This document shows positions 26,489 through 61,299 of a stretch of DNA of 64,000 nt, piece after piece. The notes below the pieces were generated by a model. The model was not told where the DNA came from. It saw only the letters and a program-made list of their open reading frames with translations, and searched no databases. Numbering within the stretch: position 1 is the stretch's first letter; the number at the start of each line of letters is the position of its first letter. The position numbers were made by a program, and so were the translations under genes. Location of the stretch: assembly GCF_001886855.1 (NCBI RefSeq), contig NZ_CP013197.1:1116001-1180000 (forward strand), written 5' to 3'. Source of the stretch: Spiroplasma citri (GTDB lineage: Bacteria > Bacillota_I > Bacilli_A > Mycoplasmatales > Mycoplasmataceae).

Positions 26489-26579
26489 TTTTTTTCCTCC
26501 TTTTTATTTCTAATTTTTATTATATTTATTTTTGATTAATTGTCAATTTTTAAACTTTTAATATTCTTAAAAACCCTTT

Positions 26580-26621
26580 GGGACGGTTGTGTTACTTAAT
26601 GGGACGGTTGTGTTACTTAAT
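26580..26621. repeat. J motif, tandem duplicated
   Basis: Two exact 21-bp copies (26580-26600 and 26601-26621) containing GGTTGTGTTACTTAAT. The rep of U4 is cut off exactly here. Confidence 0.85.
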
Positions 26622-27455
26622 TCAAAAATAATCTTTATTTCAATCACTATCAATACTAACACCCATTAAATAACCATCTTTATTATTAAACATAAAATTA
26701 TGTTTTGTTCCTTTTAATGAAGCAATTAATTCCATTTCACACATCTCAATAATACCAACTTTAACAACCGGGTCAGTGCAATTGGCACTAAAACGATATG
26801 CTTTGGTATTTAAGTCATAAATATTTTTTGATTTTTGTTGAGTGTATGCTTTTACAATGTATTTTGCAACATATTTACTAACAAATTCATTTGTACCAGT
26901 TTTAACTGGTAAATTTTTATTTAACCCATAAAGTCAATATTTTCTTATTATTTTATTAGGAATATATTCACTAAATATGATATGAAAATGGACTGCTCCG
27001 CGTTTTTGATATTCATAAGCAACTAAATATTTTAAATTTTCATATTTATTCTTTTTATATTTAGAAAAGTGATACTTTATTTTTTTAATAAATAAATTAA
27101 ATTGATGATTAGCCTGTTTTACATCTTGCATATTTTCTGCATAAGTTAAAGTCGTAAAACCTAAATTTTGATAACCATTAAAATTATGGATTGCTTTTTG
27201 AATACAATTTCTTTGCGAACGAATACGACTATTTAATAATTTAGTTTCATTTTCCCCAGTATTTTTAATCCCAGTTGGATTGCCTTTACCAAATTTATTA
27301 ATACACTCTAACGGTAAAACAACTGTTTTAATATATGGACCATAATATACTTTTTTAACATAGTATTTTTGATTAATAAAATTACTATTATCAATATAAG
27401 GTCTGTATAGAACTTCTCCAGTCAAACGATTATAAGGATTTATATTTACATTCAT
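26613..27455 (-). pseudogene. HUH Rep (U4), 3'-truncated at J
   Basis: 280 residues remain, with FTTLTYAEN, VHFHIIF and SKYVAKYIVK intact. About 55 C-terminal residues, including the variable segment, and the stem-loop are missing because the reading frame runs into the J motif and stops. Confidence 0.85.
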
Positions 27456-27594: not shown

Positions 27595-28134
27595 TTAAAT
27601 ATTTTTTATTTCTTTTATTTCACTTTGAGGATTTGCGCCAAAAATAACTAACGATACTTCACTAACAATAGCATTTTTTATATAAACTGCTTCTTTTTCG
27701 TGTATTTTTTTAATTTCTAAATCATCTTCATCAATTTTTGCACCAATACTAAGTTGCATTGGGCGATTTTCTTCTTGCATTTGTTTAATAACATAAATAA
27801 TATTTTTACCTTTTATTGTATTCGTATATAATCTCATTTTAACTCATAAACCATCTTCACAATTTTCTAATTTAGCAATACCTAAAAAATTATCATAATC
27901 ATATTTATGTTCTAAAAAAATAGGAACAATTATTTTATTTTGTTTAAATTGATTTTCAAAACTTTTTTTATCAAAAAAACTACCTTTACTATCAACAATA
28001 TTATACTTATTAGCAATACCAATTAATTCAACGACTTTATTTTCCTTAAAATTAGAATTATAACAAGATATTAAATTAGATGCACTTGTTGTTAATAGAA
28101 CTGAACTTAATAAAAATGCTAAAATTTTTTTCAT
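27595..28134 (-). CDS. Lipoprotein carrying an HK97-type prohead protease (S78) domain
   Basis: 179 residues (an internal TGA is Trp). A signal peptide ends in LISC with Cys24. The mature part follows the S78 prohead-protease pattern in order: GIANKYNIVDSKG, VPIFLEHKYD (His76), FLGIAKLENCEDGLWVK, MQLSIGAKI (Ser129), and IVSEVSLVIFGANPQSEI (Glu159). The three residues match the Ser-His-Glu triad of HK97-type capsid proteases. Filamentous phages build no prohead, so a surface-anchored protease-like protein is inferred. Located in the moron slot between J and DR1. No ribosome site stronger than a GGATGG is seen. Confidence 0.8.
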
Positions 28135-28240
28135 ATTTTTTTACCATCCTTAAAATAATTAATATATTTTTAAACATATTATATTTAATCATTTTTATTT
28201 TGTCAATTTTTAAAATTACACTTTTCTTTAAAATTGTTTT

Positions 28241-28260
28241 CTCCCGTTATGCTACTTAAT
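28241..28260. repeat. J motif (U5)
   Basis: CTCCCGTTATGCTACTTAAT, a variant of the recurrent junction motif, directly before the hairpin cluster. Confidence 0.7.
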
Positions 28261-28267
28261 CAAGGAA

Positions 28268-28351
28268 AGGGGCTTCGCCCCTAAGTCGCTCCGCGACTTT
28301 TACCCCTTTAAGTAAGGTGGTGCGTGGATAAACCACCACACCACCTTACTT
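28268..28351. other. Triple-hairpin cluster (U5)
   Basis: Three hairpins in a row: GGGGC/GCCCC with a TTC loop, AAGTCGC/GCGACTT, and a 13-bp stem AAGTAAGGTGGTG/CACCACCTTACTT. GC-rich in an AT-rich genome. Repeated in U6, U7, U9 and U10 between the attachment gene and J. Candidate packaging signal or complementary-strand origin, or a terminator. Confidence 0.75.
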
Positions 28352-28381
28352 TTTTTTACCAACAACATTATTTTACTACTA

Positions 28382-29797
28382 CTAAAAATAGCGTAAAAGT
28401 CCATTAACCATTGCTAAAACTAAAATAGAACTTAACATAATCTTAAATGTAATATCAAAAGCAAACAAATTACCAATATTATTAAACAATTCAGAAACAT
28501 TACTAAACACATGTACTATTCCATTAACAAATTTATAAATTTCTTTCATACCAGGCAAATTATTTACAATCCAAATTGCCGCATTTTGAATATGAATATC
28601 TAAACGATATCAAGCACCTTTTTTATAAGATAATTGTCAAATTTTTCCATCATTAAGTTCACCACTTCAATCAGTAGCATTATAAAGACTAAAATTAAAA
28701 CCATGAATTGAAATAGACCTATCTTCTGTTAATGTAGTTGTATTAAATCTAATTACATTAAAACCTTGATATTTTGACCTATCTGTCATATCTAATAATT
28801 TTATTGATTGAGTATATTTATCATTATTAGAAGGTAAAATATCAGTCTTATAATCTCAATTTGAATAATAAGAAAAATAATCATTAGTACTATTTATCGT
28901 ATAAGCATTATACAATTGCACTCGTGGTTTTAAATAATAAATATCTGTATCAGGAAATCTTAAAATATTAAAAACCATTGATTTTGGATATAATAAAAAA
29001 CCATTTTTTACAAAAAACACAAAACCTAAATTACCATTATTAGATGTAAAATTAGATGTAAAATAAATAAATTCTCTAAAATTAGAAATATCAAATATAA
29101 CTCTTAAAACATTAGAATAAAAATAATCTAAAATTAGAAATAAATTATCCAACGAATAAAAATTTTGTTTAACATTATCAACAAAATAATTACTGTTAGA
29201 TTTTTTAAGAATATCCATATTAATTAATTCTTTATAATTAAAATTTAAAACTAAATAATTCATATCAAAATGTTTATAACTTTGATTGGCAATAATCGGC
29301 ATAAATAAATATTCTATAATTTCTCAATTAAAAGTAAATTCATATTTTATATTGTTTTTATAAATAAAAATATCTAACAATTTATTTGGCGTTTTATAAT
29401 CTATTATTAATCTACCCAAAGGAACCTTTGAAATATCTTGTGAATTTCAACTTAATAAATAACTTCAAACAGTATTTTTAATTTTATTAAATCAATAATT
29501 ACTATCATTTTTATCAGCACTTACATTTGGAATAAAAGGAGTTGTAACACCAAAACTAAATGCATAATTACTAGGGTCTAAACCTTGCATAAAATAATCT
29601 TGTCGCAACATTAAAGTAGACTGAAAATCATACTCATTTGCTTTTGCATAAGTTAAATCACTAAAACTATCATTATTTCTTGTTTCTAATTTACAAACAT
29701 TACTAATATAATTTACAGCTGTAACACCACAAAAAAGAAATATTCAACCAAATATTAAATAAAAAATAATAAATATATCTAATAATCGTTTTCGCAT
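28382..29797 (-). CDS. pIII-like attachment/minor coat protein (U5)
   Basis: 471 residues, intact under code 4. Signal/membrane helix (LLDIFIIFYLIFGWIFLFC), a Tyr/Asn-rich exported part (DFQSTLMLRQDYFMQGLDPS), and C-terminal GMKEIYKFVNGIVHVFSNVS with a final membrane helix ending LLRYF. A four-residue tandem duplication (TSNF) is present only in this copy. Shorter than, and barely similar to, the unit 1 protein, except in layout. Confidence 0.8.
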
Positions 29798-29810
29798 TGT
29801 TTTAACCCCC

Positions 29811-30047
29811 TTAAACAATAAAAATAATTCTAATACCCATAATAATAATTCCAAACGCCATATATAACTGGAAAATAGGGTGTGTTGCAATAATAAATAA
29901 CTGTGCTACTAATTTATAAAAATCATTAGCAGACTCCAAATAATGCTTAACAGTTGAAAAACCTAAATCTGTTGCAACAACAATATTAGCAACAAAACCA
30001 AACCCAACAGTTAAACCAATAACAAAGAAAAATATTAACTTTAACAT
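29811..30047 (-). CDS. Phage two-helix membrane protein (U5)
   Basis: 78 residues, MLKLIFFFVIGLTVGFGFVA and FIIATHPIFQLYMAFGIIIM. Function by position only. Confidence 0.7.
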   Translation of the reverse strand: MLKLIFFFVIGLTVGFGFVANIVVATDLGFSTVKHYLESANDFYKLVAQLFIIATHPIFQLYMAFGIIIMGIRIIFIV

Positions 30048-30050
30048 TAT

Positions 30051-30410
30051 TTATTCATTTCCTTTATTTGTTTTCGCTGACATTCTTGCCTTTTTGTTTG
30101 CTGAACGAGTACCAACATAATTACCAAATTTTTTACCAGACTTATAAGAAAACGAAACAACACCTTTCGCACCCTTTGCTAAACTAGAACTTGCTTCTAA
30201 ACTTGCACGAGAAACTGAACTTAAACCACGAGAACTATTAACTAATAATAAAATAACATTTATAACACCACCAATTACTCAAATTACAAATAAAGGAATA
30301 TTTGTACCCGGCAATTTTAATGTTCACATTCAGTCCATTATTTTCATAAAAATATCAACTATGGTATTAATAGCACCATTCCATACATCATTAGCAAATA
30401 AATTAATCAT
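30051..30410 (-). CDS. Phage membrane protein (U5, 119-residue family)
   Basis: 119 residues: KIMDWMWTLKLPGTNIPLFV, a membrane helix, then a basic tail KSGKKFGNYVGTRSANKKAR. Confidence 0.7.
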
Positions 30411-31413
30411 TTTCTAACTCTCCTAAATTCTTTAATAAATGTTCCATCCCCATCTCTCGTAATTCATTAATCGTAATATCTTTTTTAACAATACTAGGTC
30501 AATTTTGTTTAATATAACTTGGTACTTTATCATTTTTTAAATCACGCACAAATTTTAAATATTTACTATCGTATTGCATTGCAATAGATAAAGGAATTGT
30601 TATCTTAACAAAATTAATACCAATATCTTTATTAGATTTTTTACGAACTCTTTTCCCGTTTGCTGTTCGTTTAACTGTTTCCGTTTTTCATACTAAATAA
30701 TCATCTAAATCATCAAAGAAACCTATTTTCATTTTAAAATAAGGAAAAAATATACTAGGTGGAATACATTGCATAGGAACAATAATCATATTAGCAATTT
30801 CTCTATATTCGACTCAATTTTGATTAATTCGTTGTCCGGCAAAAATAATATTATTATTAAACTGACGACATAATAAAAAATATGCTTTTAAACCACTAAA
30901 TTTTTTATCATTTTCCTTAGGGTTTGTACCATTTATATATAAAAATATTTCATCAAATAAAATTAAACTATCATCTGGCGGTATTTTATATTTTTTATTT
31001 TTAAAATCTAAATGGTTTAAACCTAAAACTCCAATTTTTTCATCATTAATAAAATAATTAGAATAAACATTATCAAATTTAGCAATTTGCGATAAATAAG
31101 TCATCAATAAAGTTTTACCAGTACCCAAAGCACCGTTAATAATTGATATTGGACTACTTTTAACAATTTTAATTAATTTCCGTGTTTGAAAAAGATTACT
31201 AAAAAAAGACCAAAAAAAGATAATATCAAAAATTACATCAAAAATAAAAAGAATAATATCTATAACTGATATAGAACAAAAATATATAAATTGTAAATTA
31301 AAACAAACAATAAAAAGATAAAACAAAATATTTGCCATAAATCAATTTACAAATCAATAAGAAAACTTAATATTTTTTTGTCTTTTAAATAAATTAAAAT
31401 AATTTTTAAACAT
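30403..31413 (-). CDS. Zot/pI-like assembly ATPase (U5)
   Basis: 336 residues, intact. Two N-terminal membrane helices, P-loop GALGTGKT, Walker B LILFDE, GQRINQNWVEY, and a conserved C-terminus ITLNELREMGMEHLLKNLGE. Its stop overlaps the next start. Confidence 0.85.
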
Positions 31414-31417
31414 ATAT

Positions 31418-31627
31418 CTACACCACCAATCTAATTGTTTTATATAAAATAAATAATGATAATCAAATTAAGAAAAAAACAACTAATCAAACACCTATCA
31501 TAATTACTGAATAAGTAATATTATCAATAGAACTACCGACAAAGTTATCAATTTCAGTTTTCGGAATAAAATAAAAAATTTGTAAAAGACCTTGATATAC
31601 TCGTTGCAAAAAAATATTTCAGTCCAT
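31418..31627 (-). CDS. Minor phage membrane protein (U5)
   Basis: 69 residues, MDWNIFLQRVYQGLLQIFYF, then an acidic linker and one membrane helix. Confidence 0.65.
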
Positions 31628-31785
31628 TATTTTATCCACCTAAAAATACAACTTAAAATTAAAAATAACATCCCAAAAACAAGTATTAAAAATACAACAA
31701 ATATAACAATATCTAAAATAACGGGATGATTAACTCCAAAAATAATTGTCATAAATTCATAATATAAATCTCATACACTTTGCAT
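31627..31785 (-). CDS. Minor phage membrane protein interrupted by host sequence elsewhere (U5, intact)
   Basis: 52 residues: MQSVWDLYYEFMTIIFGVNH, then a membrane helix. The intact frame shows GATATTGTTATATTTG at the point where the 20.2-kb and 54.9-kb copies switch to PTS IIA sequence. Confidence 0.75.
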
Positions 31786-31806
31786 TTTTCTTATTCCTTT
31801 CCTAAA

Positions 31807-32130
31807 TGTTAATTACTAAAATCAAGGTTAGAGTTTATTATTAAATATTAATATCCGTGAATTAACTTTCTGATTGTTTCAATTCCTAAAACCACAAACA
31901 TTAAAACTAACGGAATAATTAATAACATATGTGACCCTAAAAAAGTAATAAATCAGTTAGTAAAAGCAATCGCTCAATTAGCAAGAATAGCAGCAAAATC
32001 CGCTATTTGCTTAATAACATCAGCGTCGCCCGCTAATAAATTTACATTCATTAATAACACCTCACTTAAAACACTTTCTATTTAATAATAAAACCTTCGC
32101 ATACTCTAACCTTGATTTTAGTAATTAACA
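31807..32130. repeat. Inverted repeat enclosing the U5 coat gene
   Basis: Perfect 28-bp arms 31807-31834 and 32103-32130. An outer ACCTTCGCA/TGCGAAGGT pair and an inner hairpin are on the right side. Confidence 0.85.
31848..32051 (-). CDS. Major coat protein (U5)
   Basis: 67 residues, MNVNLLAGDADVIKQIADFA, AFTNWFITFLGSHML, one long membrane helix and a basic end RKLIHGY. The N-terminal acidic, central hydrophobic and C-terminal basic layout is typical of inovirus coat proteins. Confidence 0.8.
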
Positions 32131-32183
32131 TTAAAAACTAAAATCAATTTTTATACTTGCGAAGGTATTTCATTGATATTAAC

Positions 32184-32375
32184 TTATTCAACAGACTTAT
32201 CTGCTTTTTTAATTTTTCGTTTTCCTCATTCTTTAAATTCTACTTTTTTAGAACAATGCGGACAAATTAAATACTTATTTTTAAACTTAAATATTGTATT
32301 AACTGTTAAAAAAACTAATAACATTAACATTGCAATTACTAAAATAATTGTTGCAAAAACAGTCGTTACGGTCAT
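32184..32375 (-). CDS. Membrane protein with CxxC tail (U5)
   Basis: 63 residues, three longer at the N-terminus (MTVTTVFAT) than the U9 copy. CPHCSKK tail. Confidence 0.65.
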
Positions 32376-32602
32376 TAATTATCACCTTTACTTTCTATAT
32401 TTAACATATAATTTTTGACTTGCTCCACTAATAATTTAAAATGTTGTTCTTCCATAACACCAATATCAATAAAATTATGATTAAGATACAATTTAATTAC
32501 TTTTCTTAACATAAATAATGGTATTTTATTAGGTAAACATTGATGTATAACATTAACTAAATATTCTAATCGCTGTTTATATAACTTAGTTTGCTTTTTC
32601 AT
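32375..32602 (-). CDS. 75-residue phage protein (U5)
   Basis: Helical and basic, MKKQTKLYKQRLEYLVNVIH, then MEEQHFKLLVEQVKNYML. Start overlaps the previous stop (TAATG). Function unknown. Confidence 0.6.
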   Translation of the reverse strand: MKKQTKLYKQRLEYLVNVIHQCLPNKIPLFMLRKVIKLYLNHNFIDIGVMEEQHFKLLVEQVKNYMLNIESKGDN

Positions 32603-32721
32603 TAAAAAAATCCAACATAAACAAAAAACAATATAAATCAAATAACTAATAATAAACAAGAACTTATAAAAATAATTCAATCTCAATTAATATTTATTTT
32701 TTTATTTTTATTTTTTGTCAT
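32602..32721 (-). CDS. Small membrane peptide (U5)
   Basis: 39 residues: basic MTKNKNKK start and one membrane helix. It takes the place that the CCCH peptide occupies in U9 and U12. Confidence 0.5.
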
Positions 32722-32845
32722 AATCTAACCTAGAATAATAATTATTAATTAAAGCAACATTTTCATTAACACAATTTCAACAATAACGAGACCCATTCTC
32801 TCAAACAGTGTCATTAACACAAACCATACATAACTGTTGTTGCAT
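32708..32845 (-). CDS. Zinc-ribbon peptide (U5)
   Basis: 45 residues, CMVC...CWNC as at 24249, ending RLDYDKK. Confidence 0.7.
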
Positions 32846-32846
32846 A

Positions 32847-33197
32847 TTAATTATTGCTTTCTGTTATTGCTGAACTACTAGAATATTTATTAATAAAATC
32901 TTGTTGTCTATTGTATGGAACAACTTTAACAACACTTACTTTGTTATATTCTTTTCCCGTTTTTCTATCAGTGACAACTGGGAATTTAAGATTAATTAAA
33001 TAGTAATTACCTTTTTTCATTTCTGGTAAATCATTAGATAAATTACTATCTTTTTTAATTCAAGAGATAATATACTCCTTAGGAATTGGCATATCATCCT
33101 CATCAAGCTGCATAAATGTAAATACATCAAAAAATAAATTTTCTTTGTCATCCATTTGTCTATTAAAATCAACTTGGGCTAATAATACTTTATACAT
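32847..33197 (-). CDS. Small phage protein after the origin region (U5)
   Basis: 116 residues, MYKVLLAQVDFNRQMDDKEN, diverged from the U3/U9/U12 type but same C-terminal DFINKYSSSS. Ribosome site AAAGGAG. Same inferred role as at 24382. Confidence 0.55.
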
Positions 33198-33591
33198 ATA
33201 AAGTACTCCTTTCTTCACTTAATTAAGTAAATAAAGGTTTCATAAGGTTTAAAACTTTAAATAATTATAAATGCTAAAAATAAATTAACAATAATTAAAC
33301 TTATTAAAAAATATTCTATTAAAAAATGAATGTAAATATAAATGCAAAATAAAAACATTTATCTATATTTAAAGTTTCGTTCGAAGAAACCGTTTATTTT
33401 GGTTTGAATACTTAAATATAACTAAATGTTATAAATAATATTCTAATTTAATTTTACATAACAAAATAAATATGTCAACTACATATTTCAAAGCCAAAAA
33501 TAAATTTATTTATAAATTTACATCCCCAACTTGTTTTTTTTTTTTTTTTTGTTTTAATTAATTTGTGGTATAGGTTGTTCGAAGACTATAC
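33198..33591. promoter_or_regulatory. Origin-like spacer of U5: anti-rep segment, DR2, poly-T, stem-loop with tag
   Basis: 33326-33345 is the exact inverted copy of the rep start (20 of 20). DR2 has the tag TCGTTCGAAGA at 33377-33387. A T-run (33533-33550) precedes the stem-loop 33568-33591 (GTATAG/CTATAC), whose 12-nt loop carries GTTCGAAGA at 33577-33585. Here the palindrome of U3 is replaced by TTAATTAA. Confidence 0.8.
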
Positions 33592-34596
33592 TGCACAATT
33601 AGTACTTTCCATTTGGAAGGTACTTTTTTTTATGTACCTTTTTTTACCCAAATTAAGGTATTTATCGTATTTTTTTCGTATTTTATATTTATCTAAATCA
33701 GATATTTTGTTAAAAAACCGGAATATTTTTTTATCATATGGAACATATTCTTCCATTTGTCAAAAATAATCACTATGCCAATCACTATCAATACTAATAC
33801 CCAACATATGTTTTTTTTGTTTATCAGCAAACATATAAAAATGTTTTATGCCGCATAATGCCATTTTTAACTCTTCTTTTGTCATTTCAATAACACCAAC
33901 TTTAATAACGGGATTAGTACAATTTGCACTAAAACGATATGCTTTGGTATTTAAGTCATAAATATTTTTTGATTTTTCTTGACTATATGCTTTTACAATA
34001 TATTTAGCAACATATTTACTAACAAATTCATTTGTACCAGTTTCAACTGGTAAATTTTTATTTAGTCCATAAGATCAATATTTTCTAATTATTTTATTAG
34101 GGATATACTCACTAAATATAATATGAAAATGAACTGCTCCGCGTTTTTGATATTCATAGGCAACTAAATATTTTAAATTCTGATATTTATTATTTTTATA
34201 TTTAGAAAAATGATATTTTATTTTTTTAATAAATAAATTAAATTGATAATTTGCTTTTTTAATATCTTGCATATTTTCAGCATAAGTTAAAGTTGTAAAA
34301 CCCATATTTTTATAACCACTAAAATTATGGATTGCTTTTTGAATACAATTTCTTTGAGAACGAACACGACTATTTAATAGTTTAGTTTCATTCTCACCAG
34401 TATTTTTAATCCCTGTTGGATTACCTTTACCAAAATTATTAATACACTCTAACGGTAAAACAACTGTTTTAATATAAGGACCATAATATACTTTTTTAAC
34501 ATAATATTTTTCATTAATATAACATTCAGGGTTTATATAAGGTTTATATAAATTTTCTCCTGTTAAACGATTGTATGCATTTATATTTACATTCAT
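33586..34596 (-). CDS. HUH rolling-circle Rep (U5)
   Basis: 336 residues, intact. FTTLTYAEN (motif 1), VHFHIIF (HUH), SKYVAKYIVK (catalytic Tyr region). Variable C-terminal segment SDLDKYKIRKKYDKY. The stop TAG is the 3' arm of the stem-loop. Confidence 0.88.
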
Positions 34597-34632
34597 TTTT
34601 TATTTTCCTTTCTAAAACAAAAAAAAAAAAAA

Positions 34633-34690
34633 ACATTTATCTATATTTAAAGTTTCGTTCGAAGAAACCGTTTATTTTGGTTTGAATACA
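34633..34690. repeat. DR1 of U5
   Basis: Tag TCGTTCGAAGA at 34655-34665, same as in DR2. The hairpin loop is enlarged (AAACC-GTTTATTTT-GGTTT) in both repeats of this unit. Confidence 0.8.
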
Positions 34691-34762
34691 TTAAACATTT
34701 GGATAAATGTTTTTTTATTCTAAATTAATTATATTTTTTTATTGTTTATTGTCAATTTTTAA

Positions 34763-35284
34763 TTATTTATTTGTTTTTTTATTTAAAACTGAATCATAAT
34801 TATTTATTTTAATATAATTTTCTGTAATTTCTGCTTTTAATTTTTCACAATCAGAATTTTCACAATTAGATTTCACATTAATTCCTTGTTGCAATCAAGA
34901 TATTTTTTGATTATTTTCAGAAATAATTTTATTAGGAAGTCAAGTAATTGGACCATTTTTGATACTTTCTTCAAACATTTTTATAGCATCTATGTTTTGT
35001 TTTTTTAAATCTTCATTTTTTTTATTAACTCATTCTAAACAAGTTTTACATTTAAATAATTTTTCTTTTAATTTTATATTATTAATTTCTAAAACTGACT
35101 TTTTTTCTGCTGCTTCAATTAAAATTTTATTTGAATCAAAAGTAATATTATTTTCCATATTATTTTTTTTCTTTATTCAGTGTCATCATCGTATTTTATT
35201 TTTTTTAAAATTTCCATTATCATAATTATCACTATTAAATTTTATTTTATTATCAGAAAGATTTTTTTTATTAAATCAACCCAT
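34763..35284 (-). CDS. Accessory protein of U5 (moron slot)
   Basis: 173 residues, hydrophilic and helical. MGWFNKKNLSDNKIKFNSDN at the start, a central CKTCLEW, and NCENSDCEKLKAEI near the end, so four Cys may bind metal. AAAGGAG ribosome site. Several TGA codons as Trp. An internal ATG (MENNITFDS) could be a second start. Confidence 0.6.
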
Positions 35285-35350
35285 ATATTTAAATCAACTC
35301 CTTTTAATTTATTCTAATTAAATAATATCATTTTTTTATTTTTTTGTCTT

Positions 35351-35371
35351 TCTCCTGTTGTGTTACTTAAT
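35351..35371. repeat. J motif (U6)
   Basis: TCTCCTGTTGTGTTACTTAA and one more T, before the hairpin cluster. Confidence 0.75.
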
Positions 35372-35377
35372 CAAGGA

Positions 35378-35462
35378 AAGGGGCTTCGCCCCTAAGTCGC
35401 TCCGCGACTTTTACCCCTTTAAGTAAGGTGGTGCGTGGATAAACCACCACACCACCTTACTT
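35378..35462. other. Triple-hairpin cluster (U6)
   Basis: Sequence as in U5. Confidence 0.75.
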
Positions 35463-35490
35463 TTTTACCAACAACATTATTTTACTACTA

Positions 35491-37146
35491 CTAAAAATAG
35501 CGTAAAAGTCCATTAACCATTGCTAAAACTAAAATAGAACTTAACATAATCTTAAATGTAATATCAAAAGCAAACAAATTACCAATATTATTAAACAATT
35601 CAGAAACATTACTAAACACATGTACTATTCCATTAACAAATTTATAAATTTCTTTCATACCAGGCAAATTATTTACAATCCAAATTGCCGCATTTTGAAT
35701 ATGACAAGCAATATTATATCAACTACAACTTTTATAAGGTATTTTTCAAATATCACCACTATTAATTTCATTATTTCAATCAGTAGCATTATAAAGACTA
35801 AAATTAAAACCATTAATTGAAATAGACCTATCCTCTGTTAATCTAGTTGTATTAAATCTAATTACATTAAAACCTTGATATTTTGTTCTATCTGTCATAT
35901 CTAATAATTTTATTGATTGAGTTCATTTATCATTATTAGAAGGTAAAATATCAGTCTTATAATCTCAATTTGAATAATAAGAAAAATAATCATTAGTACT
36001 ATTTATCGTATAGGCATTATACAATTGCACTTGTGGTTTTAAATAATAAATATCTACATCAGGAAATCTTAAAATATTAAAAACCATTGATTTTGGATAT
36101 AATAAAAAACCATTTTTTACAAAAAACACAAAACCTAAATTACCATTATTAGATGTAAAATAAATAAATTCTCTAAAATTAGAAATATCAAATATAACTC
36201 TTAAAACATTAGAATAAAAATAATCTAAAATTAGAAATAAATTATCCAACGAATAAAAATTTTGTTTAACATCATCAACAAAATAATTACTATTAGATTT
36301 TTTAAGAATATCCATATTAATCAATTCTTTATAATTAAAATTTAAAACTAAATAATTCATATCAAAATATTTATAACTCTGATTGGCAATAATTGGCATA
36401 AATAAATATTGTATAATTTCTCAATTAAAAGTAAATTCATATTTTATATTGTTTTTATAAATAAAAATATCTAACAATTTATTTGGAGTTTTATAATCTA
36501 TTATTAATCTACCCAAAGAACCCTTAGAAATATCTGCTAAATTTCAACTTAATAAATAATTTCAAACAGTATTTTTAATTTTATTAAATCAATAATTACT
36601 ATCATTTTTATCAGCACTTAAATTTGGAATAAAAGGAGTTTCAACACCAAAACTAAATGCATAATTACTAGGGTCTAAACCTTGCATAAAATAATCTTGT
36701 CGCAAAATTAAAGTAGACTGAAAATCATACTCATTTGCTTTTGCATAAGTTAAATCACTAAAACTATCATTATTTCTTGTTTCTAATTTACAAACATTAC
36801 TAATATAATTTACAGCTGTAACACCACAAAAAAGAAATATTCAACCAAATATTAAATAAAAAATAATAAATATATCTAATAATCGTTTTCGCATTGTTTT
36901 AACCCCCTTAAACAATAAAAATAATTCTAATATACCCATAATAATAATTCCAAACGCCATATATAACTGGAAAATAGGGTGTGTTGCAATAATAAATAAC
37001 TGTGCTACTAATTTATAAAAATCATTAGCAGACTCCAAATAATGCTTAACAGTTGAAAAACCTAAATCTGTTGCCACAACAATATTAGCAACAAAACCAA
37101 ACCCAACAGTCAAACCAATAACAAAGAAAAATATTAACTTTAACAT
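35491..37146 (-). CDS. Fusion of the two-helix membrane protein with the attachment protein (U6)
   Basis: In other units the 78-residue gene stops before the attachment gene. Here a 2-bp insertion near 36933 removes that stop and puts it in frame with the attachment ATG at 36894, giving one 551-residue frame. The attachment part (467 residues) is otherwise complete, and its own ATG and ribosome site remain, so both products could be made. Confidence 0.75.
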
Positions 37147-37508
37147 TATTTATCATTCTCCTTATTTATTTTTGCTGACATTCTTGCCTTTTTATTTGCT
37201 GAACGAGTACCAACATAATTACCAACTTTTTTACCAGATTTATATGAAAATGAAACAGTACCCTTAACACCTTTGGCAATATTAGAACTTGCTTCTAAAC
37301 TTGCACGAGAAACTGAACTTAAACCACGAGAACTATTAACTAACAAAAAGATAACATTTATAACACCACCAATTACTCAAATTACAAATAAAGGAATATT
37401 TGTACCTGGTAATTTTAATGCTCACATTCAATCCATTATTTTCATAAAAATATCAACTACAACATTAATGGCATCATTTCATACATCATTAGCAAGTAAA
37501 TTAATCAT
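37146..37508 (-). CDS. Phage membrane protein (U6, 119-residue family)
   Basis: 120 residues, nearly identical to the U9 copy (basic tail KSGKKVGNYVGTRSANKKAR). Confidence 0.7.
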
Positions 37509-38511
37509 TTTCTAACTCTCCTAAATTCTTTAATAAATGTTCCATTCCCATCTCTCGTAATTCATTAAGTGTAATATCTTTTTTTAACAATACTAGGTCA
37601 ATTTTGCTTAGTATAACTTGGTACTTTATCATTTTTTAAATCACGTACAAACTTTAAATATTTACTATCATATTGCATTGCAATAGATAAAGGAATTTTT
37701 ATCTTAACAAAATTAATACCAATATCTTTATTAGATTTTTTACGAACTCTTTTTCCGTTTGATGTTCGTTTAACCGTTTCCGTTTTTCATGTTAAATAAT
37801 CATCTAAATCATCAAAAAAACCTATTTTCATTTTAAAATAAGGAAAAAATATACTAGGTGGAATACATTGCATAGGAACAATAATCATATTAGCAATTTC
37901 TCTATATTCGACTCAATTTTGATTAATTCGTTGTCCGGCAAAAATAATATTATTATTAAACTGACGACATAATAAAAAATATGCTTTTAAACCACTAAAT
38001 TTTTTATCATTTTCCTTAGGGTTTGTACCATTTATATATAAAAATATTTCATCAAATAAAATTAAACTATCATCTGGCGGTATTTTATATTTTTTATTTT
38101 TAAAATCTAAATGGTTTAAACCTAAAACTCCAATTTTTTCATCATTAATAAAATAATTAGAATAAACATTATCAAATTTAGCAATTTGCGATAAATAAGT
38201 CATCAATAAAGTTTTACCAGTACCCAAAGCACCGTTAATAATTGATATTGGACTACTTTTAACAATTTTAACAAGTTTCCGTGTTTGAAAAAGATCACTA
38301 AAAAAGACCAAAAGAAAATAATATCAAAAATTACTAAAAAAATAAAAAAGATAATATCTATAACTGATGTAGAACTAAAATATATAAACTGTAAATTAAA
38401 ACAAACAATAAAAAAATAAAACAAAATATTTGCCATAAATAAATTTACATATCAATAAGAAAACTTAATATTTTTTTGTCTTTTAAATAAATTAAAATAA
38501 TTTTTAAACAT
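37501..38511 (-). pseudogene. Zot/pI-like ATPase (U6), two compensating slips
   Basis: Walker A GALGTGKT and B LILFDE are present, but an A run near 38305 is one short and a T run near 37588 one long, so neither the N-terminal helices nor the C-terminus is in frame with the core. Confidence 0.75.
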
Positions 38512-40292: not shown

Positions 40293-41297
40293 TACACAAG
40301 GAGTATTTTCCATTTGGAAAGTACTTTTTTTAATGTACCTTTGTTTACCTAAATTAAGGTATTTATCTAATTTTTTTCGTGTTTTATATATGCCAATATC
40401 AGTTATTTTATTAAAAAATCGAAATATTTTTTTATCATATGGGACATATTCTTCCATTTGTCAAAAATAATCACTATGCCAATCACTATCAATACTAATA
40501 CCCAACATATGTTTTTTTTGTTTATCAGCAAACATATAAAAATGTTTTATGCCGCATAATGCCATTTTTAACTCTTCTTTTGTCATTTCAATAACACCAA
40601 CTTTAATAACGGGATTAGTACAATTTGCACTAAAACGATATGCTTTGGTATTTAAGTCATAAATATTTTTTGATTTTTCTTGGCTATATGCTTTTACAAT
40701 ATATTTAGCAACATATTTACTAACAAATTCATTTGTACCAGTTTCAACTGGTAAATTTTTATTTAGTCCATAAGATCAATATTTTCTAATTATTTTATTA
40801 GGGATATACTCACTAAATATAATATGAAAATGAACTGCTCCGCGTTTTTGATATTCATAGGCAACTAAATATTTTAAATTCTGATATTTATTATTTTTAT
40901 ATTTAGAAAAATGATATTTTATTTTTTTAATAAATAAATTAAATTGATAATTTGCTTTTTTAATATCTTGCATATTTTCAGCATAAGTTAAAGTTGTAAA
41001 ACCCATATTTTTATAACCACTAAAATTATGGATTGCTTTTTGAATACAATTTCTTTGAGAACGAACACGACTATTTAATAGTTTAGTTTCATTCTCACCA
41101 GTATTTTTAATCCCTGTTGGATTACCTTTACCAAAATTATTAATACACTCTAACGGTAAAACAACTGTTTTAATATAAGGACCATAATATACTTTTTTAA
41201 CATAATATTTTTGATTAATATAACAATCAGGGTTTATATAAGGTTTATATAAATTTTCTCCTGTTAAACGATTATATGCATTTATATTTACATTCAT
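40287..41297 (-). CDS. HUH rolling-circle Rep (U6)
   Basis: 336 residues. The first 173 residues differ from the U5 Rep at only two positions, but the C-terminal segment is TDIGIYKTRKKLDKY instead of SDLDKYKIRKKYDKY, matching the change of tag. Confidence 0.88.
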
Positions 41298-41333
41298 TTT
41301 TTAAATTTTTCCTTTCTAAAACAAAAATAAAAA

Positions 41334-41390
41334 AACATTTACCTATATTTAAAGTTTCGTGTCAGAAAACCTTTATTGGTTTGAATACAT
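41334..41390. repeat. DR1 of U6
   Basis: Tag TCGTGTCAGAA at 41357-41367. Confidence 0.8.
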
Positions 41391-41536
41391 TAAACATTTT
41401 GATAAATGTTTTTTTATTCTAATTTATATTATATTTTTTTATTTTTAGTTGTCAATTTATTTTACATAGCAATGATATCGTAATTAAAAATATTTATAAA
41501 ATAAAAAATAACAAATTAATTATTGTTTAATTTAAA

Positions 41537-41992
41537 TTATCAATATTTATCTACTCATTCTCTATGATTTCATTTAATTTTATTCTGATATTTTTTATTA
41601 TTAGTATAAAAATTAATAGTGTAAATAATATCTTCTGGTGTTTTTTGTATTACTAAATTTTGTTTTTTAATACAAATATTACTATTTTCTTTTAATTTAA
41701 TTTTTGCATAACCATTAACACATTTATAAATAAAATTTTTATCTTCCAAAAAGATATCTATAATTTCTAAATTTTCAATAAATAGTTCTTGAGAAAGAAA
41801 TATTTTTTTTTCTTTTAATTTATTAAATATTGTTTTTTCATCAACTTTATTTATATATCCAATATCTATTGTAGTAATAATTTTTTGTAAAGTTGGTGGT
41901 TTTTTTTGATTATTTGACATCATAGCCATTAAAGGTGCTCCTCCACTTGTTGTTATAGTAGTTGCTCCGATTAAACTTAATAATTTTTTCAT
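41537..41992 (-). CDS. Exported accessory protein of U6 (moron slot)
   Basis: 151 residues. Signal peptide MKKLLSLIGATTITTSGGAP without a lipobox Cys, shared with the U9 moron (MSIKKILSLIGATVITTSGV), while the mature parts differ. Ends NHREWVDKYW. Function unknown, probably secreted or membrane-tethered. Confidence 0.65.
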
Positions 41993-42090
41993 ATATATTA
42001 TTCCTTTTTTATTATTTATATGTATTTGATATACATAATTTAACTATATTTAATTATTTTTCTTTTGTCAAATTTACTTATTTTCCCATT

Positions 42091-42111
42091 TTTCCTGTTG
42101 TGCTAGTTAAT
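42091..42111. repeat. J motif (U7)
   Basis: TTCCTGTTGTGCTAGTTAAT variant. Confidence 0.7.
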
Positions 42112-42119
42112 TCAAGGAA

Positions 42120-42203
42120 AGGGGCTTCGCCCCTAAGTCGCTCCGCGACTTTTACCCCTTTAAGTAAGGTGGTGCGTGGATAAACCACCACACCACCTTA
42201 CTT
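42120..42203. other. Triple-hairpin cluster (U7)
   Basis: Sequence as in U5. It heads a unit that has lost its structural genes. Confidence 0.75.
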
Positions 42204-42230
42204 TTTTTACCAACAACATTATTTTTACTA

Positions 42231-42553
42231 TTAAAAATAGCGTAAAAGTCCGTTAACCATTGCTAAAACTAAAATAGAACTTAACATAATTTTAAATGTA
42301 ATATCAAAAGCAAACAAATTACCAATATTATTAAACAATTCAGAAACATTACTAAACACATGTACTATCCCATTAACAAATTTATAAATTTCTTTCATAC
42401 CAGGCAAATTATTTACAATCCAAATTGCCTCATTTTCAATATGAATATCTAAACGGTATCAAGCACCTTTTTTATAAGGTAATTGTCAAATTTTTCCATC
42501 ATTAAGTTCACCACTTCAATCAGTAGCATTATAAAGACTAAAATTAAAACCAT
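42231..42553 (-). pseudogene. 3' end of an attachment gene (U7)
   Basis: The last ~107 codons (to LLRYF) are kept. At 42553 the sequence switches to the spacer downstream of DR2 (ACTAAATGTTATAAATAATA), a deletion of all genes from DR2 to the middle of the attachment gene. Confidence 0.8.
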
Positions 42554-44105: not shown

Positions 44106-44205
44106 ATTTTTTTCTCCTTTTTATTCTAAATTAATTATATTTATTTCTAATTGATTGTCAATTTACTTTAATTTTTAAAATTTTTGTTTTTCTTAAAAAC
44201 TCTTT

Positions 44206-45688: not shown

Positions 45689-46741
45689 TTATTGTATTAG
45701 TAAATTGTTGTGTAAACTAATACTTTTTTTATGCCGTTTTTTATAATTTTCAAAGAATAATTTTTGTTCCTTTCAATGTTGATATTGTTTTCGATAAAAT
45801 GGGACATATTCTTCTATTTGTCAAAAATAATCGTTTTCTAAATAACTATCAATGCTAACACCCATTATATAACCTTGTTTATCAACAAACATAAATTTAT
45901 TTTTTATACCTTTTAATGAAGCAATTAATTCCATTTCACACATTTCAATAATACCAACCTTTACAAGTGGGTCGGTACAATTTGCACTAAAACGATATGA
46001 TTTTTTATTTAAATTATAAATATTTCTTAATTTAACTTCTGATACTTTTTTAGGTTTTTTGTAAGGAATATCAAATTCTTTGCAAAGTTCCTTTTTTTGT
46101 CTTTCAGTATTAGATAATGACTTAACAAAATATTTAGTTAAATATTTAATAACAAAAACATTTGTATTTTTTTTAACTTTAAGATTTTTATTTATTCCAT
46201 AAGGTCAATATTCTCTTATTAAATTTGAACTAATAAATCTATTAAATATTATATGAAAATGTATAATTGGAATTCCTTTTCGGTCTTGATATTCATAAAC
46301 AACTAAATATTTAAGATTAATAAAAGTATTTTTCTTATATTTAGAAAAATGATATTTTAACTTTTTAATAAATAAATTAAAATGATAATTTGCTTTATCT
46401 AAATCTTGCATTTTTTCGGCATAAGTCAAAGTTAAAAAACCTAATTCTTTGCAATCACTAAAATTATGAATTGCTTTACGAATACAATTACCTTGGGAAC
46501 GAACACGACTATTTAATAATTTAGTTTCATTTTTACCATTATTTTTAATACCAGTCGGATTACCATTGCCAAAACTATCAACACATTCTAAGGGTAGAAC
46601 AATATTTTTAACATAATTACCATAGTATACTTTTTTAACATAGTATTTTTTATTAATAAAATTACTATTATCAATATATGGTCTATATAAATTTTCTTTT
46701 GTTAAACGATTATATGCATTTATATTTATATTATTTTCCAT
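45689..46741 (-). CDS. HUH rolling-circle Rep, B type (U8)
   Basis: 350 residues, intact. FLTLTYAEK, IIHFHIIFNRF (HUH) and IKYLTKYFVK. It is clearly related to the other Reps, but with an insertion after the catalytic region (KELCKEFDIPYKKPKKVSEV) and a different C-terminus ending KRHKKSISLHNNLLIQ. AAAGGAGG ribosome site. It lacks DR1/DR2 and has its own tag sites. Confidence 0.88.
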
Positions 46742-46826
46742 TTTTTACCTCCTTTCGTTAAAATTTGATGATTTTTTTATAAAAACTAAATTTTAAAACC
46801 TTGATTTTATTGGGTTATTTTCGTTT

Positions 46827-46847
46827 TCTCCAGTTGTGTTATTTAAT
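46827..46847. repeat. J motif (U9)
   Basis: TCTCCAGTTGTGTTATTTAA and T, followed by a second short CTACTTAATCAAG. Confidence 0.7.
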
Positions 46848-46863
46848 CTACTTAATCAAGGAA

Positions 46864-46947
46864 AGGGGCTTCGCCCCTAAGTCGCTCCGCGACTTTTACC
46901 CCTTTAAGTAAGGTGGTGCGTGGATAAACCACCACACCACCTTACTT
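46864..46947. other. Triple-hairpin cluster (U9)
   Basis: Sequence as in U5. Confidence 0.75.
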
Positions 46948-46975
46948 TTTTACCAACAACATTATTTTACTACTA

Positions 46976-48379
46976 CTAAAAATAGCGTAAAAGTCCATTA
47001 ACCATTGCTAAAACTAAAATAGAACTTAACATAATCTTAAATGTAATATCAAAAGCAAACAAATTACCAATATTATTAAACAATTCAGAAACATTACTAA
47101 ACACATGTACTATTCCATTAACAAATTTATAAATTTCTTTCATACCAGGCAAATTATTTACAATCCAAATTGCCGCATTTTCAATATGAATATCTAAACG
47201 GTATCAAGCACCTTTTTTATAAGGTAATTGTCAAATTTTTCCATCATTAAGTTCACCACTTCAATCAGTAGCATTATAAAGACTAAAATTAAAACCATTA
47301 ATTGAAATAGACCTATCTTCTGTTAATCTGGTTGTATTAAATCTAATTAAATTAAAACCTTGATATTTTGACCTATCTGTCATATCTAATAATTTTATTG
47401 ATTGAGTATATTTATCATTATTAGAAGGTAAAATATCAGTCTTATAATCTCAATTTGAATAATAAGAAAAATAATCATTAGTACTATTTATCGTATAAGC
47501 ATTATATAATTGCACTTGTGGTTTTAAATAATAAATATCTGTATCAGGAAATCTTAAAATATTAAAAACCATTGATTTTGGATATAATAAAAAACCATTT
47601 TTTACAAAAAACACAAAACCTAAATTACCATTATTAGATGTAAAATAAATAAATTCTCTAAAATTAGAAATATCAAATATAACTCTTAAAACATTAGAAT
47701 AAAAATAATCTAAAATTATAAATAAATTATCCAACGAATAAAAATTTTGTTTAACATCATCAACAAAATAATTACTATTAGATTTTTTAAGAATATCCAT
47801 ATTAATCAATTCTTTATAATTAAAATTTAAAACTAAATAATTCATATCAAAATATTTATAACTCTGATTGGCAATAATTGGCATAAATAAATATTGTATA
47901 ATTTCTCAATTAAAAGTAAATTCATATTTTATATTGTTTTTATAAATAAAAATATCTAACAATTTATTTGGAGTTTTATAATCTATTATTAATCTACCCA
48001 AAGAACCCTTAGAAATATCTGCTAAATTTCAACTTAATAAATAATTTCAAACAGTATTTTTAATTTTATTAAATCAATAATTACTATCATTTTTATCAGC
48101 ACTTAAATTTGGAATAAAAGGAGTTTCAACACCAAAACTAAATGCATAATTACTAGGGTCTAAACCTTGCATAAAATAATCTTGTCGCAACATTAAAGTA
48201 GACTGAAAATCATACTCATTTGCTTTTGCATAAGTTAAATCACTAAAACTATCATTATTTCTTGTTTCTACTTTACAAACATTACTAATATAATTTATAG
48301 TTGTAACACTACAAAAAAGAAATATTCAACCAAATATTAAATAAAAAATAATAAATATATCTAATAATCGTTTTCGCAT
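46976..48379 (-). CDS. pIII-like attachment/minor coat protein (U9)
   Basis: 467 residues, intact. Differs from the U6 protein at few positions. Lacks the TSNF duplication of U5. Confidence 0.8.
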
Positions 48380-56784: not shown

Positions 56785-58187
56785 ATGCGAAAACGATTAT
56801 TAGATATATTTATTATTTTTTATTTAATATTTGGTTGAATATTTCTTTTTTGTAGTGTTACAGCTGTAAATTTTATTAGTAATGTTTGTAAAATAGAAAC
56901 AAGAAATAATGATAATTTTAGTGATTTAACTTATGCAAAAGCAAATGAGTATGATTTTCAGTCTACTTTAATGTTGCGACAAGATTATTTTATGCAAGGT
57001 TTAGACCCTAGTAATTATGCATTTAGTTTTGGTGTTGAAATTCCTTTTATTCCAAAAGTGAGTGTTGATAAAAATGATAGTAATTATTGATTTAATAAAA
57101 TTAAAAATGCTGCTTGAAATTATTTATTAAGTTGAAACCCGAAAGATATTTCTAAGGGTTTTTGGGGTAAATTAATTATTAATTATGAAACCCCAAATAA
57201 ATTGTTAGATATTTTTATTTATAAAAACAATATAAAATATGAATTTACTTTTAATTGAGAAATTATACAATATTTATTTATGCCAATTATTGCCAATCAG
57301 AGTTATAAACATTTTGATATGAATTATTTAGTTTTAAATTTTAATTATAAAGAATTGATTAATATGGATATTCTTAAAAAATCTAACAGTAATTATTTTG
57401 TTAATGATGTTAAACAAAATTTTTATTCGTTGGATAATTTATTTCAAGTTTTAGATTATTTTTATTCTAATGTTTTAAGAGTTATATTTGATATTTCGAA
57501 TTTTAGAGAATGTATTTATTTTACATCTAATAATGGTAATTTAGGTTTTGTTTTTTTGTAAAAAATGGTTTTTTATTATATCCAAAATCAATGGTTTTTA
57601 ATATTTTAAGATTTCCTGATACAGATATTTATTATTTAAAACCACAAGTGCAATTGTATAATGCTTATACGATAAATAGTACTAATGATTATTTTTCTTA
57701 TTATTCAAATTGAGATTATAAGACTGATATTTTACCTTCTAATAATGATAAATATACTCAATCAATAAAATTATTAGATATGACAGATAGGTCAAAATAT
57801 CAAGGTTTTAATTTAATTAGATTTAATACAACCAGATTAACAGAAGATAGGTCTATTTCAATTAATGGTTTTAATTTTAGTCTTTATAATGCTACTGATT
57901 GAAATGGTGAACTTAATGATGGAAAAATTTGACAATTACCTTATAAAAAAGGTGCTTGATACCGTTTAGATATTCATATTGAAAATGCGGCAATTTGGAT
58001 TGTAAATAATTTGCCTGGTATGAAAGAAATTTATAAATTTGTTAATGGAATAGTACATGTGTTTAGTAATGTTTCTGAATTGTTTAATAATATTGGTAAT
58101 TTGTTTGCTTTTGATATTACATTTAAAATTATGTTAAGTTCTATTTTAGTTTTAGCAATGGTTAACGGACTTTTACGCTATTTTTAA
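56785..58187 (+). pseudogene. Attachment protein (U10), one slip
   Basis: One base missing in the GTTTTTTTG run near 57555 stops the frame after 258 codons. The remaining 3' part to LLRYF is otherwise intact. Confidence 0.8.
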
Positions 58188-58214
58188 TAGTAAAAATAAT
58201 GTTGTTGGTAAAAA

Positions 58215-58298
58215 AAGTAAGGTGGTGTGGTGGTTTATCCACGCACCACCTTACTTAAAGGGGTAAAAGTCGCGGAGCGACTTAGGGGCGAAGCCCCT
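58215..58298. other. Triple-hairpin cluster (U10), inverted relative to U5
   Basis: Reverse complement of the U5 cluster. Confidence 0.75.
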
Positions 58299-58305
58299 TT
58301 CCTTG

Positions 58306-58326
58306 ATTAACTAACACAACTGTCCC
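58306..58326. repeat. J motif (U10/U11)
   Basis: ATTAACTAACACAACTGTCC and C, reverse orientation. Confidence 0.7.
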
Positions 58327-58415
58327 AAAGCAAAAATAACTCAATAAAATCAAGGTTTTAAAATTTAGTTTTTATAAAAAAATCATCAAAAAATTTAATG
58401 AAAGGAGGTAAAAAA

Positions 58416-59458
58416 ATGGAAAATAATATAAATACAAATGCATACAATCGTTTAACGAAAGAAAATTTATATAGACCATATATTGATAATAGTAATTTTA
58501 TTAATAAAAAATACTATGTTAAAAAAGTATACTATGGTAATTATGTTAAAAATATTGTTCTACCCTTAGAATGTGTTGATAGTTTTGGTAAAGGCAATTC
58601 AACTGGTATTAAGAATACTGGTGAAAATGAAACTAAATTAGTAAATAGTCGTGTTCGTTCCCAAGGTAATTGTATCCGTAAGGCAATTCATAATTTTAGT
58701 GATTGCAAAGAATTAGGTTTTTTAACATTAACTTATGCAGAAAATATCCAAGATATTAAAAAAGCGAATCATCATTTTAGATTATTTATAAGAAATTTAA
58801 AATATCATTTTTCTAAATATAAAAAAATACTTTTAATAATCTTAAATATTTAGTTGTTTATGAATATCAAGAAAAAGGGAGAATACATTTTCATATAATA
58901 TTTAATAGATTTATTAGTTCAAATTTAATAAGAGAATATTGACCTTATGGAATTAATCATAATGAAAAAGTTAAAAAAAATACAAATAATTTTGTTATTA
59001 AATATTTAACTAAATATTTTGTTAAGTCATTATCTAATAATGAAAGACAAAAAAAGGAACTTTGCAAAGAATTTGATATTCCTTACAAAAAGCCTAAAAA
59101 AGTATCAGAAGTTAAATTAAAAAATATTTATGACTTAAATACTAAAGCATATCGTTTTAGTGCTAATTGTACCGACCCTATTGTTAAAGTTGGTGTTATT
59201 GAAATGTGCGAAATGGAGTTAATCGCTTCATTAAAAGGTTCAGAAAATAAATTTATGTTTGTTGATAAACAAGGTTATATAATGGGCGTTAGCATTGATA
59301 GTGTTTTAGAAAATGATTACTTTTGACAAATAGAAGAATATATCCCATTTTACCGAAAACAATATCAACATTGAAAGAAACAAAAATTATTCTTTGAAAA
59401 TTATAAAAAACGGCATAAAAAAAGTATTAGTTCAAACAACAATTTACTAATACAATAA
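58416..59458 (+). pseudogene. HUH Rep, B type (U11), frameshifted
   Basis: Inverted copy of the U8 gene. A base is missing in the A7 run near 58825 (TATAAAAAAATAC), ending the frame before the HUH motif (IHFHIIFNRF, still present downstream). AAAGGAGG ribosome site. Confidence 0.8.
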
Positions 59459-61174: not shown

Positions 61175-61299
61175 AACAATTCCTCCATTTCTATGATTAA
61201 TTAATCTTAATAATTTTATCATTAATGAAAACGATAAAAAATTAAATAAATTGACAATATAAAAAATAAAAATATAATTTAACTTAGAATAAAAAAACA

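What the first reader, a model, noticed from the sequence alone, without database searches (positions are those of the whole stretch)
27595..28134. A lipoprotein with an HK97-type prohead protease (S78) domain inside a filamentous prophage array
The mature part follows the S78 motifs in order (IANKYNIVDSKG, PIFLEHK, LGIAKLENCEDGLWV, LSIGA, EVSLVIFGANP) with His, Ser and Glu in catalytic positions and normal spacing. Known members cut scaffold and capsid inside tailed-phage proheads. Here the domain has a signal peptide with a lipobox, and the host virus type has no prohead. A surface-anchored version suggests reuse, for example in attacking competing virions or processing surface proteins.
Basis: partly seen in the sequence, partly recalled or inferred. 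Interest (0 to 1): 0.85.

Follow-up and report, generated by a model that had tools for sequence, protein, structure and literature searches.

The report
Capsid protease recast as viral lipoprotein
A filamentous virus integrated in a Spiroplasma genome carries, in a slot that its relatives mostly use for secreted proteins, a capsid-cutting protease domain of the tailed-phage kind joined to a membrane-anchoring export signal; this looks like a real reuse of a phage part at the cell surface, but what it does there is unproven and only one copy is known.

Summary
The AlphaFold model (pLDDT above 90 over most of the domain) matches T4 gp21 and herpesvirus assemblins. H76, S129 and E159 are invariant in 36-40 relatives. 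The closest relatives are in the same genome: three full-length HK97-type prophages whose protease is fused to the capsid protein (52-53% identity). The lipoprotein keeps only the protease part, and its frame stops where that domain ends.

The surroundings are an SVGII3-like plectrovirus. Between its ORF1 and Rep genes these viruses have a cargo slot, empty in some copies, otherwise usually holding one gene for a signal-peptide protein; the S78 gene fills it in a complete ~7 kb unit, behind a 12/12 consensus promoter. No other S78 protein examined (80 viral, 6 other mollicute) has a lipobox, and no ortholog was found in held data.

Most likely: a tailed-phage protease domain captured, exported and anchored on the wall-less cell's surface as viral cargo. 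Surface proteolysis or phage exclusion is inference. A decaying chimera is not excluded (lipoprotein-branch dN/dS about 0.43, bootstrap reaching 1).

The parts
27595..28134 (-). S78 lipoprotein gene, 179 aa (code 4)
28066..28134 (-). signal peptide, residues 1-23, ending in lipobox LIS|C24
   Evidence: sequence; LP_plasma 18.8 bits, below cut-off 24
27613..28044 (-). Peptidase_S78 domain, residues 31-174
   Evidence: AlphaFold pLDDT 89-98 in blocks from residue 31
27907..27909 (-). codon of H76, putative catalytic His
   Evidence: invariant in alignments of 36 and 40 rows
27748..27750 (-). codon of S129, putative catalytic Ser (LSIG)
27658..27660 (-). codon of E159, putative third triad residue (EVSLV)
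28178..28206 (-). promoter-like TTGACA-17-TATAAT, 12 of 12 matches
   Evidence: 6 such sites in the window against 0.24 expected
28144..28151 (-). AAGGATGG, probable ribosome-binding site
   Evidence: sequence
28283..28351 (-). two G+C-rich inverted repeats after ORF1: left border of the cargo slot, shared by filled and empty copies
28382..29800 (-). plectrovirus ORF1 (DUF3688), upstream neighbour
26613..27455 (-). Rep gene downstream of the slot, truncated (residues 1-279 of 336)
33586..34596 (-). intact Rep at the other end of the unit that carries the S78 gene
27595..34596 (-). plectrovirus unit: Rep, ssb-like 123 aa, 103, 63, coat-like 70, 52, 73, ATPase 336, 119, 78, ORF1, S78 cargo
   Evidence: gene order comparable to SVGII3

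Best explanation
A plectrovirus cargo ('moron') gene made by joining the protease part of a Spiroplasma tailed-phage protease-capsid protein to a bacterial lipoprotein signal. Shown: the domain, its predicted fold, the conserved triad residues, the signal sequence, the source family in the same genome, the cargo slot and the promoter-like sequence. Inferred from general lipoprotein biology: the Sec system exports it, Lgt and LspA process it at Cys24, and it stays anchored on the outer face of the only membrane of this wall-less cell. Inferred, weaker: it is an active serine peptidase that acts at the surface on host surface proteins or incoming virions, and so gives the carrying virus or its host an advantage, most plausibly in competition between viruses.
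For: S78 match, assemblin fold with T4 gp21 Z 10.0 and VZV protease Z 10.1, phage prohead proteases in BFVD. Triad residues invariant. P0001 keeps as many near-invariant residues (26 of 40) as the prophage proteases (26 of 40; 24 of 40 for G025). Nearest relatives are prophage protease-capsid fusions in the same genome, 52-53%. Slot with mostly signal-peptide cargo in the related viruses and SVGII3. 12/12 promoter. Lgt and LspA encoded. Purifying selection suggested: branch dN/dS 0.43; neutral drift to such divergence would rarely keep the frame open (1.2% or less in simulation).
Against: One gene, no ortholog in held data, so no direct selection test. Bootstrap for dN/dS of the lipoprotein branch reaches 1 in 9.7% of samples, and dS is near saturation. 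LP_plasma and TIGR01543 cut-offs not reached. To my knowledge S78 proteases act inside proheads; none is known to me to work outside the cell. The second His of the relatives (HxH) is Tyr here. Divergence could predate the fusion.
Confidence: 0.5

Rival explanations
1. Surface decoy without need for catalysis: the anchored domain binds incoming tailed-phage or plectrovirus parts and blocks entry, as lipoprotein Ltp of phage TP-J34 does by binding the tape measure protein.
For: Phage-encoded surface lipoproteins for superinfection exclusion are established (PMC3952083). Competing tailed prophages are present in the same genome.
Against: Fold is assemblin-like. Full conservation of the triad residues would not be needed. 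S78 normally binds scaffold or capsid inside the procapsid, not parts exposed at entry (general knowledge).
Confidence: 0.15
2. Secreted-cargo effector for the insect or plant stage (lysogenic conversion): the slot carries surface proteins that help the bacterium in its hosts.
For: The slot in SVGII3 holds a signal-peptide propeller protein annotated as a P89 pseudogene, and P89 is an S. citri adhesion protein. Most filled slots encode signal-peptide proteins.
Against: No known link of S78 domains to eukaryotic hosts. The cargo proteins mostly have no Pfam match.
Confidence: 0.13
3. Intracellular sabotage: before export, the free protease cuts or caps tailed-phage capsid precursors too early and protects the plectrovirus-carrying cell.
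For: Substrate (capsid fusion) is encoded in the same cell by relatives of the same protease.
Against: Signal peptide with lipobox and no internal start codon: the domain is directed out of the cytoplasm.
Confidence: 0.09
4. Chance chimera or decaying gene, with no function now.
For: Single copy, no ortholog found; faster amino-acid change than in prophage copies (99.5% of bootstraps); the Rep copy just downstream is truncated and the array is full of decayed copies.
Against: Open frame, signal, consensus promoter, RBS, confident fold and triad residues all kept; neutral simulation rarely keeps the frame open.
Confidence: 0.13

Closest known systems
Protease part of the S78-capsid fusion protein of Spiroplasma tailed prophages (this genome, three full-length copies; also G016, G019, G025)
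   Same: S78 domain, 52-53% identity (48% to G025), same triad residues and same end of the domain
   Different: prophage version has no signal peptide, is fused to the HK97-type capsid domain and lies between portal and connector genes
HK97 gp4 / TIGR01543 prohead protease and T4 gp21
   Same: sequence profile match and fold
   Different: below the TIGR01543 cut-off; lipoprotein signal; outside any head operon
Plectrovirus SVGII3 (Virgulavirus) cargo gene, annotated P89 pseudogene
   Same: same slot between ORF1 and rep, with a signal peptide
   Different: beta-propeller-like repeats with no lipobox, unrelated to S78
Ltp superinfection-exclusion lipoprotein of phage TP-J34
   Same: phage-encoded lipoprotein at the host surface (PMC3952083)
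   Different: tailed-phage gene of another family; here the fold is an assemblin-type protease and no exclusion has been tested

Membership tests
Peptidase_S78 (PF04586) | profile score over the gathering cut-off | tested here: met
   43 bits against 21
Peptidase_S78 (PF04586) | His, Ser and Glu/Asp triad residues in order | tested here: met
   H76, S129, E159 invariant in alignments A3 and A4; triad pattern in prohead proteases PMC5694885
Peptidase_S78 (PF04586) | assemblin-like fold | tested here: met
   T4 gp21 5jbl Z 10.0, 135 residues; VZV protease 1vzv Z 10.1, 115 residues; phage prohead proteases E to 1e-12
Peptidase_S78 (PF04586) | peptidase activity; triad geometry | not testable with these tools
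HK97 prohead protease (TIGR01543 equivalog) | score over the equivalog cut-off | tested here: not met
   42.9 bits against 59
HK97 prohead protease (TIGR01543 equivalog) | gene next to portal and capsid genes, cytoplasmic product | tested here: not met
   neighbours are plectrovirus ORF1 and Rep; signal peptide present
Bacterial lipoprotein | N-terminal signal with lipobox and Cys | tested here: met
   KK, hydrophobic stretch, LISC at 21-24
Bacterial lipoprotein | LP_plasma domain model NF038029 | tested here: inconclusive
   18.8 bits, E 0.0017, cut-off 24
Bacterial lipoprotein | host has Lgt and LspA | tested here: met
SVGII3-like plectrovirus | rolling-circle Rep, ORF1, ATPase and small membrane proteins in the same order | tested here: met
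Ltp-type superinfection exclusion lipoprotein | blocks entry of other phages | not testable with these tools
   no assay

The most novel reading that the evidence does not exclude
A tailed-phage maturation protease has been converted by a competing filamentous virus into an exported, membrane-anchored surface protease that works against other viruses or reshapes the host surface, as one instance of a plectrovirus slot that swaps mostly secreted cargo.
Probability: 0.3. Interest if true: 0.82.

Novelty: new variant of a known kind. Interest (0 to 1): 0.62.

Why it matters
As far as I know, prohead proteases have been described only inside heads. A version with an export and lipid-anchor signal, carried by a virus without a head and living beside its own source phages, would show how viral structural enzymes become accessory weapons or surface factors. 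The cargo slot, with mostly signal-peptide genes behind near-identical promoters, also gives a testable route by which filamentous viruses could change the surface of wall-less plant and insect bacteria.

Tried and rejected
Close relatives in genome contigs, viral contigs, phages and plasmids: only tailed-phage proteases, no second lipoprotein version. Weak order-level hits in G024, G045 and G048 are N-terminal signal similarity, those in G166 and G197 spurious or ordinary prohead proteases. PDB by sequence gave nothing meaningful. Anti-phage defence models: no match for the S78 protein. Donor of the signal sequence: leader and promoter resemble many genes of this genome, no single donor found. 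Tree: the Spiroplasma rows group together (100/100), but the order among P0001, G025 and the S. citri-type copies is unresolved, and one row (L087) has an artefactually long branch. Calls with wrong references were repeated with corrected ones.

Full report
Observation. The ORF window:27595-28134, minus strand, code 4, encodes 179 aa. Residues 31-174 match Pfam Peptidase_S78 with 43 bits (cut-off 21) and PHROG head maturation proteases (E to 1e-12). NCBIfam's HK97 prohead protease equivalog TIGR01543 is matched but under its cut-off (42.9 against 59). The first 24 residues, MKKILAFLLSSVLLTTSASNLISC, have two lysines, a hydrophobic stretch and a lipobox LIS|C; NCBIfam LP_plasma gives 18.8 bits, below 24. 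Leaders of lipoprotein-like ORFs in related genomes align to it. The genome encodes Lgt and LspA.

Fold. AlphaFold with 36 aligned sequences gives mean pLDDT 86.3, above 90 for most of the domain and under 50 for residues 1-16. Solved structures: herpesvirus assemblins and T4 gp21 (Foldseek E 5.9e-5 for EBV protease; second-look Z 10.1 for VZV protease over 115 residues at 2.5 A and 10.0 for T4 gp21 over 135 residues at 3.9 A). Predicted viral structures: phage prohead proteases. H76, S129 and E159 are invariant in 40 and in 36 rows. Of 40 columns at least 90% conserved in the other rows, P0001 keeps 26, as do the two S. citri-type prophage proteases, and G025 keeps 24; it has not lost more of the core than prophage copies. 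A second His near H76 is Tyr here; it is also absent from one phage protease in the alignment.

Source. The genome has five S78 matches: three full-length copies at 595, 998 and 1333 kb, a decayed one at 1241 kb, and this one. The full-length copies are 595-598 aa fusions of S78 with the HK97-type capsid domain (Phage_capsid 129.9 bits for one of them), next to portal, terminase, tail and connector genes. P0001 is 52-53% identical to them over residues 36-179 and stops where the protease domain ends. Contig lengths suggest S. citri R8-A2 for G000, S. kunkelii CR2-3X for G016 and S. phoeniceum P40 for G019; this rests on my memory of the lengths, not on a tool. S. citri plasmids carry the same kind of prophage protease.

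Context. Rep, ORF1 and the other genes are those of an SVGII3-like plectrovirus. The S78 gene lies between ORF1 and Rep, as the cargo of a complete unit from Rep at 34596 to 27595; the Rep further downstream (27455-26613) is truncated. The same slot was read in other copies of G000, G016, G019 and in SVGII3. In some copies it is empty (about 240-320 bp). In most of the filled ones it holds a protein that begins M(K)KILSLIGATxITTSGxxPLMAM, a signal-peptide-like start. Others hold a 245-aa multi-TM protein, a 173-aa or a 92-aa protein, or (upstream of Rep, ORF1 not reached) a KAP-family NTPase. Left border: two G+C-rich hairpins after ORF1; right border: TTAGAATAAAAAAACATTT before Rep. Several filled slots have TTGACA/TATAAT-like sequences both before the cargo and before Rep, the empty slot of L035 only one; the S78 copy has one, before the cargo, so cargo and Rep could share it (inference). 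The exact motif TTGACA-N16-18-TATAAT occurs six times in the window against 0.24 expected; that at 28206-28178 scores 12 of 12.

Selection. Three-way NG86 estimates give dN/dS of about 0.43 for the lipoprotein branch, 0.16 for the S. citri-type prophage branch and 0.24 for G025; the bootstrap interval for the first is wide (2.5% point 0.15, 9.7% of samples at 1 or more), and dS is near saturation. Neutral simulation from the prophage domain kept the 139-codon frame open in 1.2% of runs at 0.2 changes per site and in 0.3% or less above. This favours a kept protein but cannot say when the fusion arose.

Rarity. None of 80 viral S78 ORFs has a lipobox. Of 320 genomes of the order, 10 have S78; the six outside this genus start without a signal. 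Searches with P0001 found no ortholog. Only one genome per species is held, so other S. citri chromosomes were not tested. Full-text search for Spiroplasma with prohead protease gave two papers, neither about such a protein by title or abstract, and none of the papers listed for prohead protease with lipoprotein and signal peptide concerns Spiroplasma by title; I did not read those. An S. citri genome paper reports 17-25 prophage-like elements per strain and a concentrated, repetitive plectrovirus region near 1.2 Mb (PMC8140453).

Mechanism. Shown: domain, predicted fold, triad residues, signal sequence, source family, slot, promoter-like site. Inferred: export, lipidation, surface position, peptidase activity, benefit. 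In a cell without wall or outer membrane an anchored lipoprotein would face the medium directly, so it could meet incoming virions or trim surface proteins. Phage-encoded surface lipoproteins that exclude other phages are known (Ltp, PMC3952083); they are a functional precedent, not relatives. Direct interference with proheads is less likely, because the signal directs the domain out of the cytoplasm and no internal ATG/GTG/TTG start exists before it.

Verdict. A real and unusual chimera: an S78-domain lipoprotein as plectrovirus cargo. Member of Peptidase_S78 by profile, fold and residues; not an HK97 prohead protease equivalog by score, context or localisation signal. Function open; surface protease cargo is the most likely reading at about one in two.

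Noticed in passing
window 34596-35500, 41297-42240, 46732-46985, 58180-58430; L030, L034, L035, L039, L044-L046, L050, L051, L056; L027 6428-7878: SVGII3-like plectroviruses have a cargo slot between ORF1 and Rep, empty or holding different genes, mostly with a shared signal-peptide-like start (KILSLIGATxITTSGxxPLMAM).
   Followed up: partly
window 26519-26546, 28178-28206, 34728-34755, 41428-41455, 44134-44161, 61251-61278: Six perfect TTGACA-N16/17-TATAAT sites, 0.24 expected by chance; those examined sit in slot leaders before cargo or Rep.
   Followed up: partly
window 26573-26615: Rep (27455-26613) is cut off at two tandem copies of a TTAAGTAACACAACCGTCCC-like motif, which also marks the left border of slots; possible recombination or end site of the virus.
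   Followed up: no
L036 3-1262, L041 3-1265: KAP-family NTPase genes upstream of Rep in G019 plectroviruses, with weak matches (L036) to defence models PDC-S20 and QatA.
   Followed up: partly
window 35491-37146 and 37504-38511: A second array unit has its 78-aa ORF fused in frame to ORF1 and a frame-broken ATPase gene: a decaying copy.
   Followed up: no
L022 7489-12419: Fourth tailed prophage region of this genome with broken protease-capsid and tail genes.
   Followed up: no
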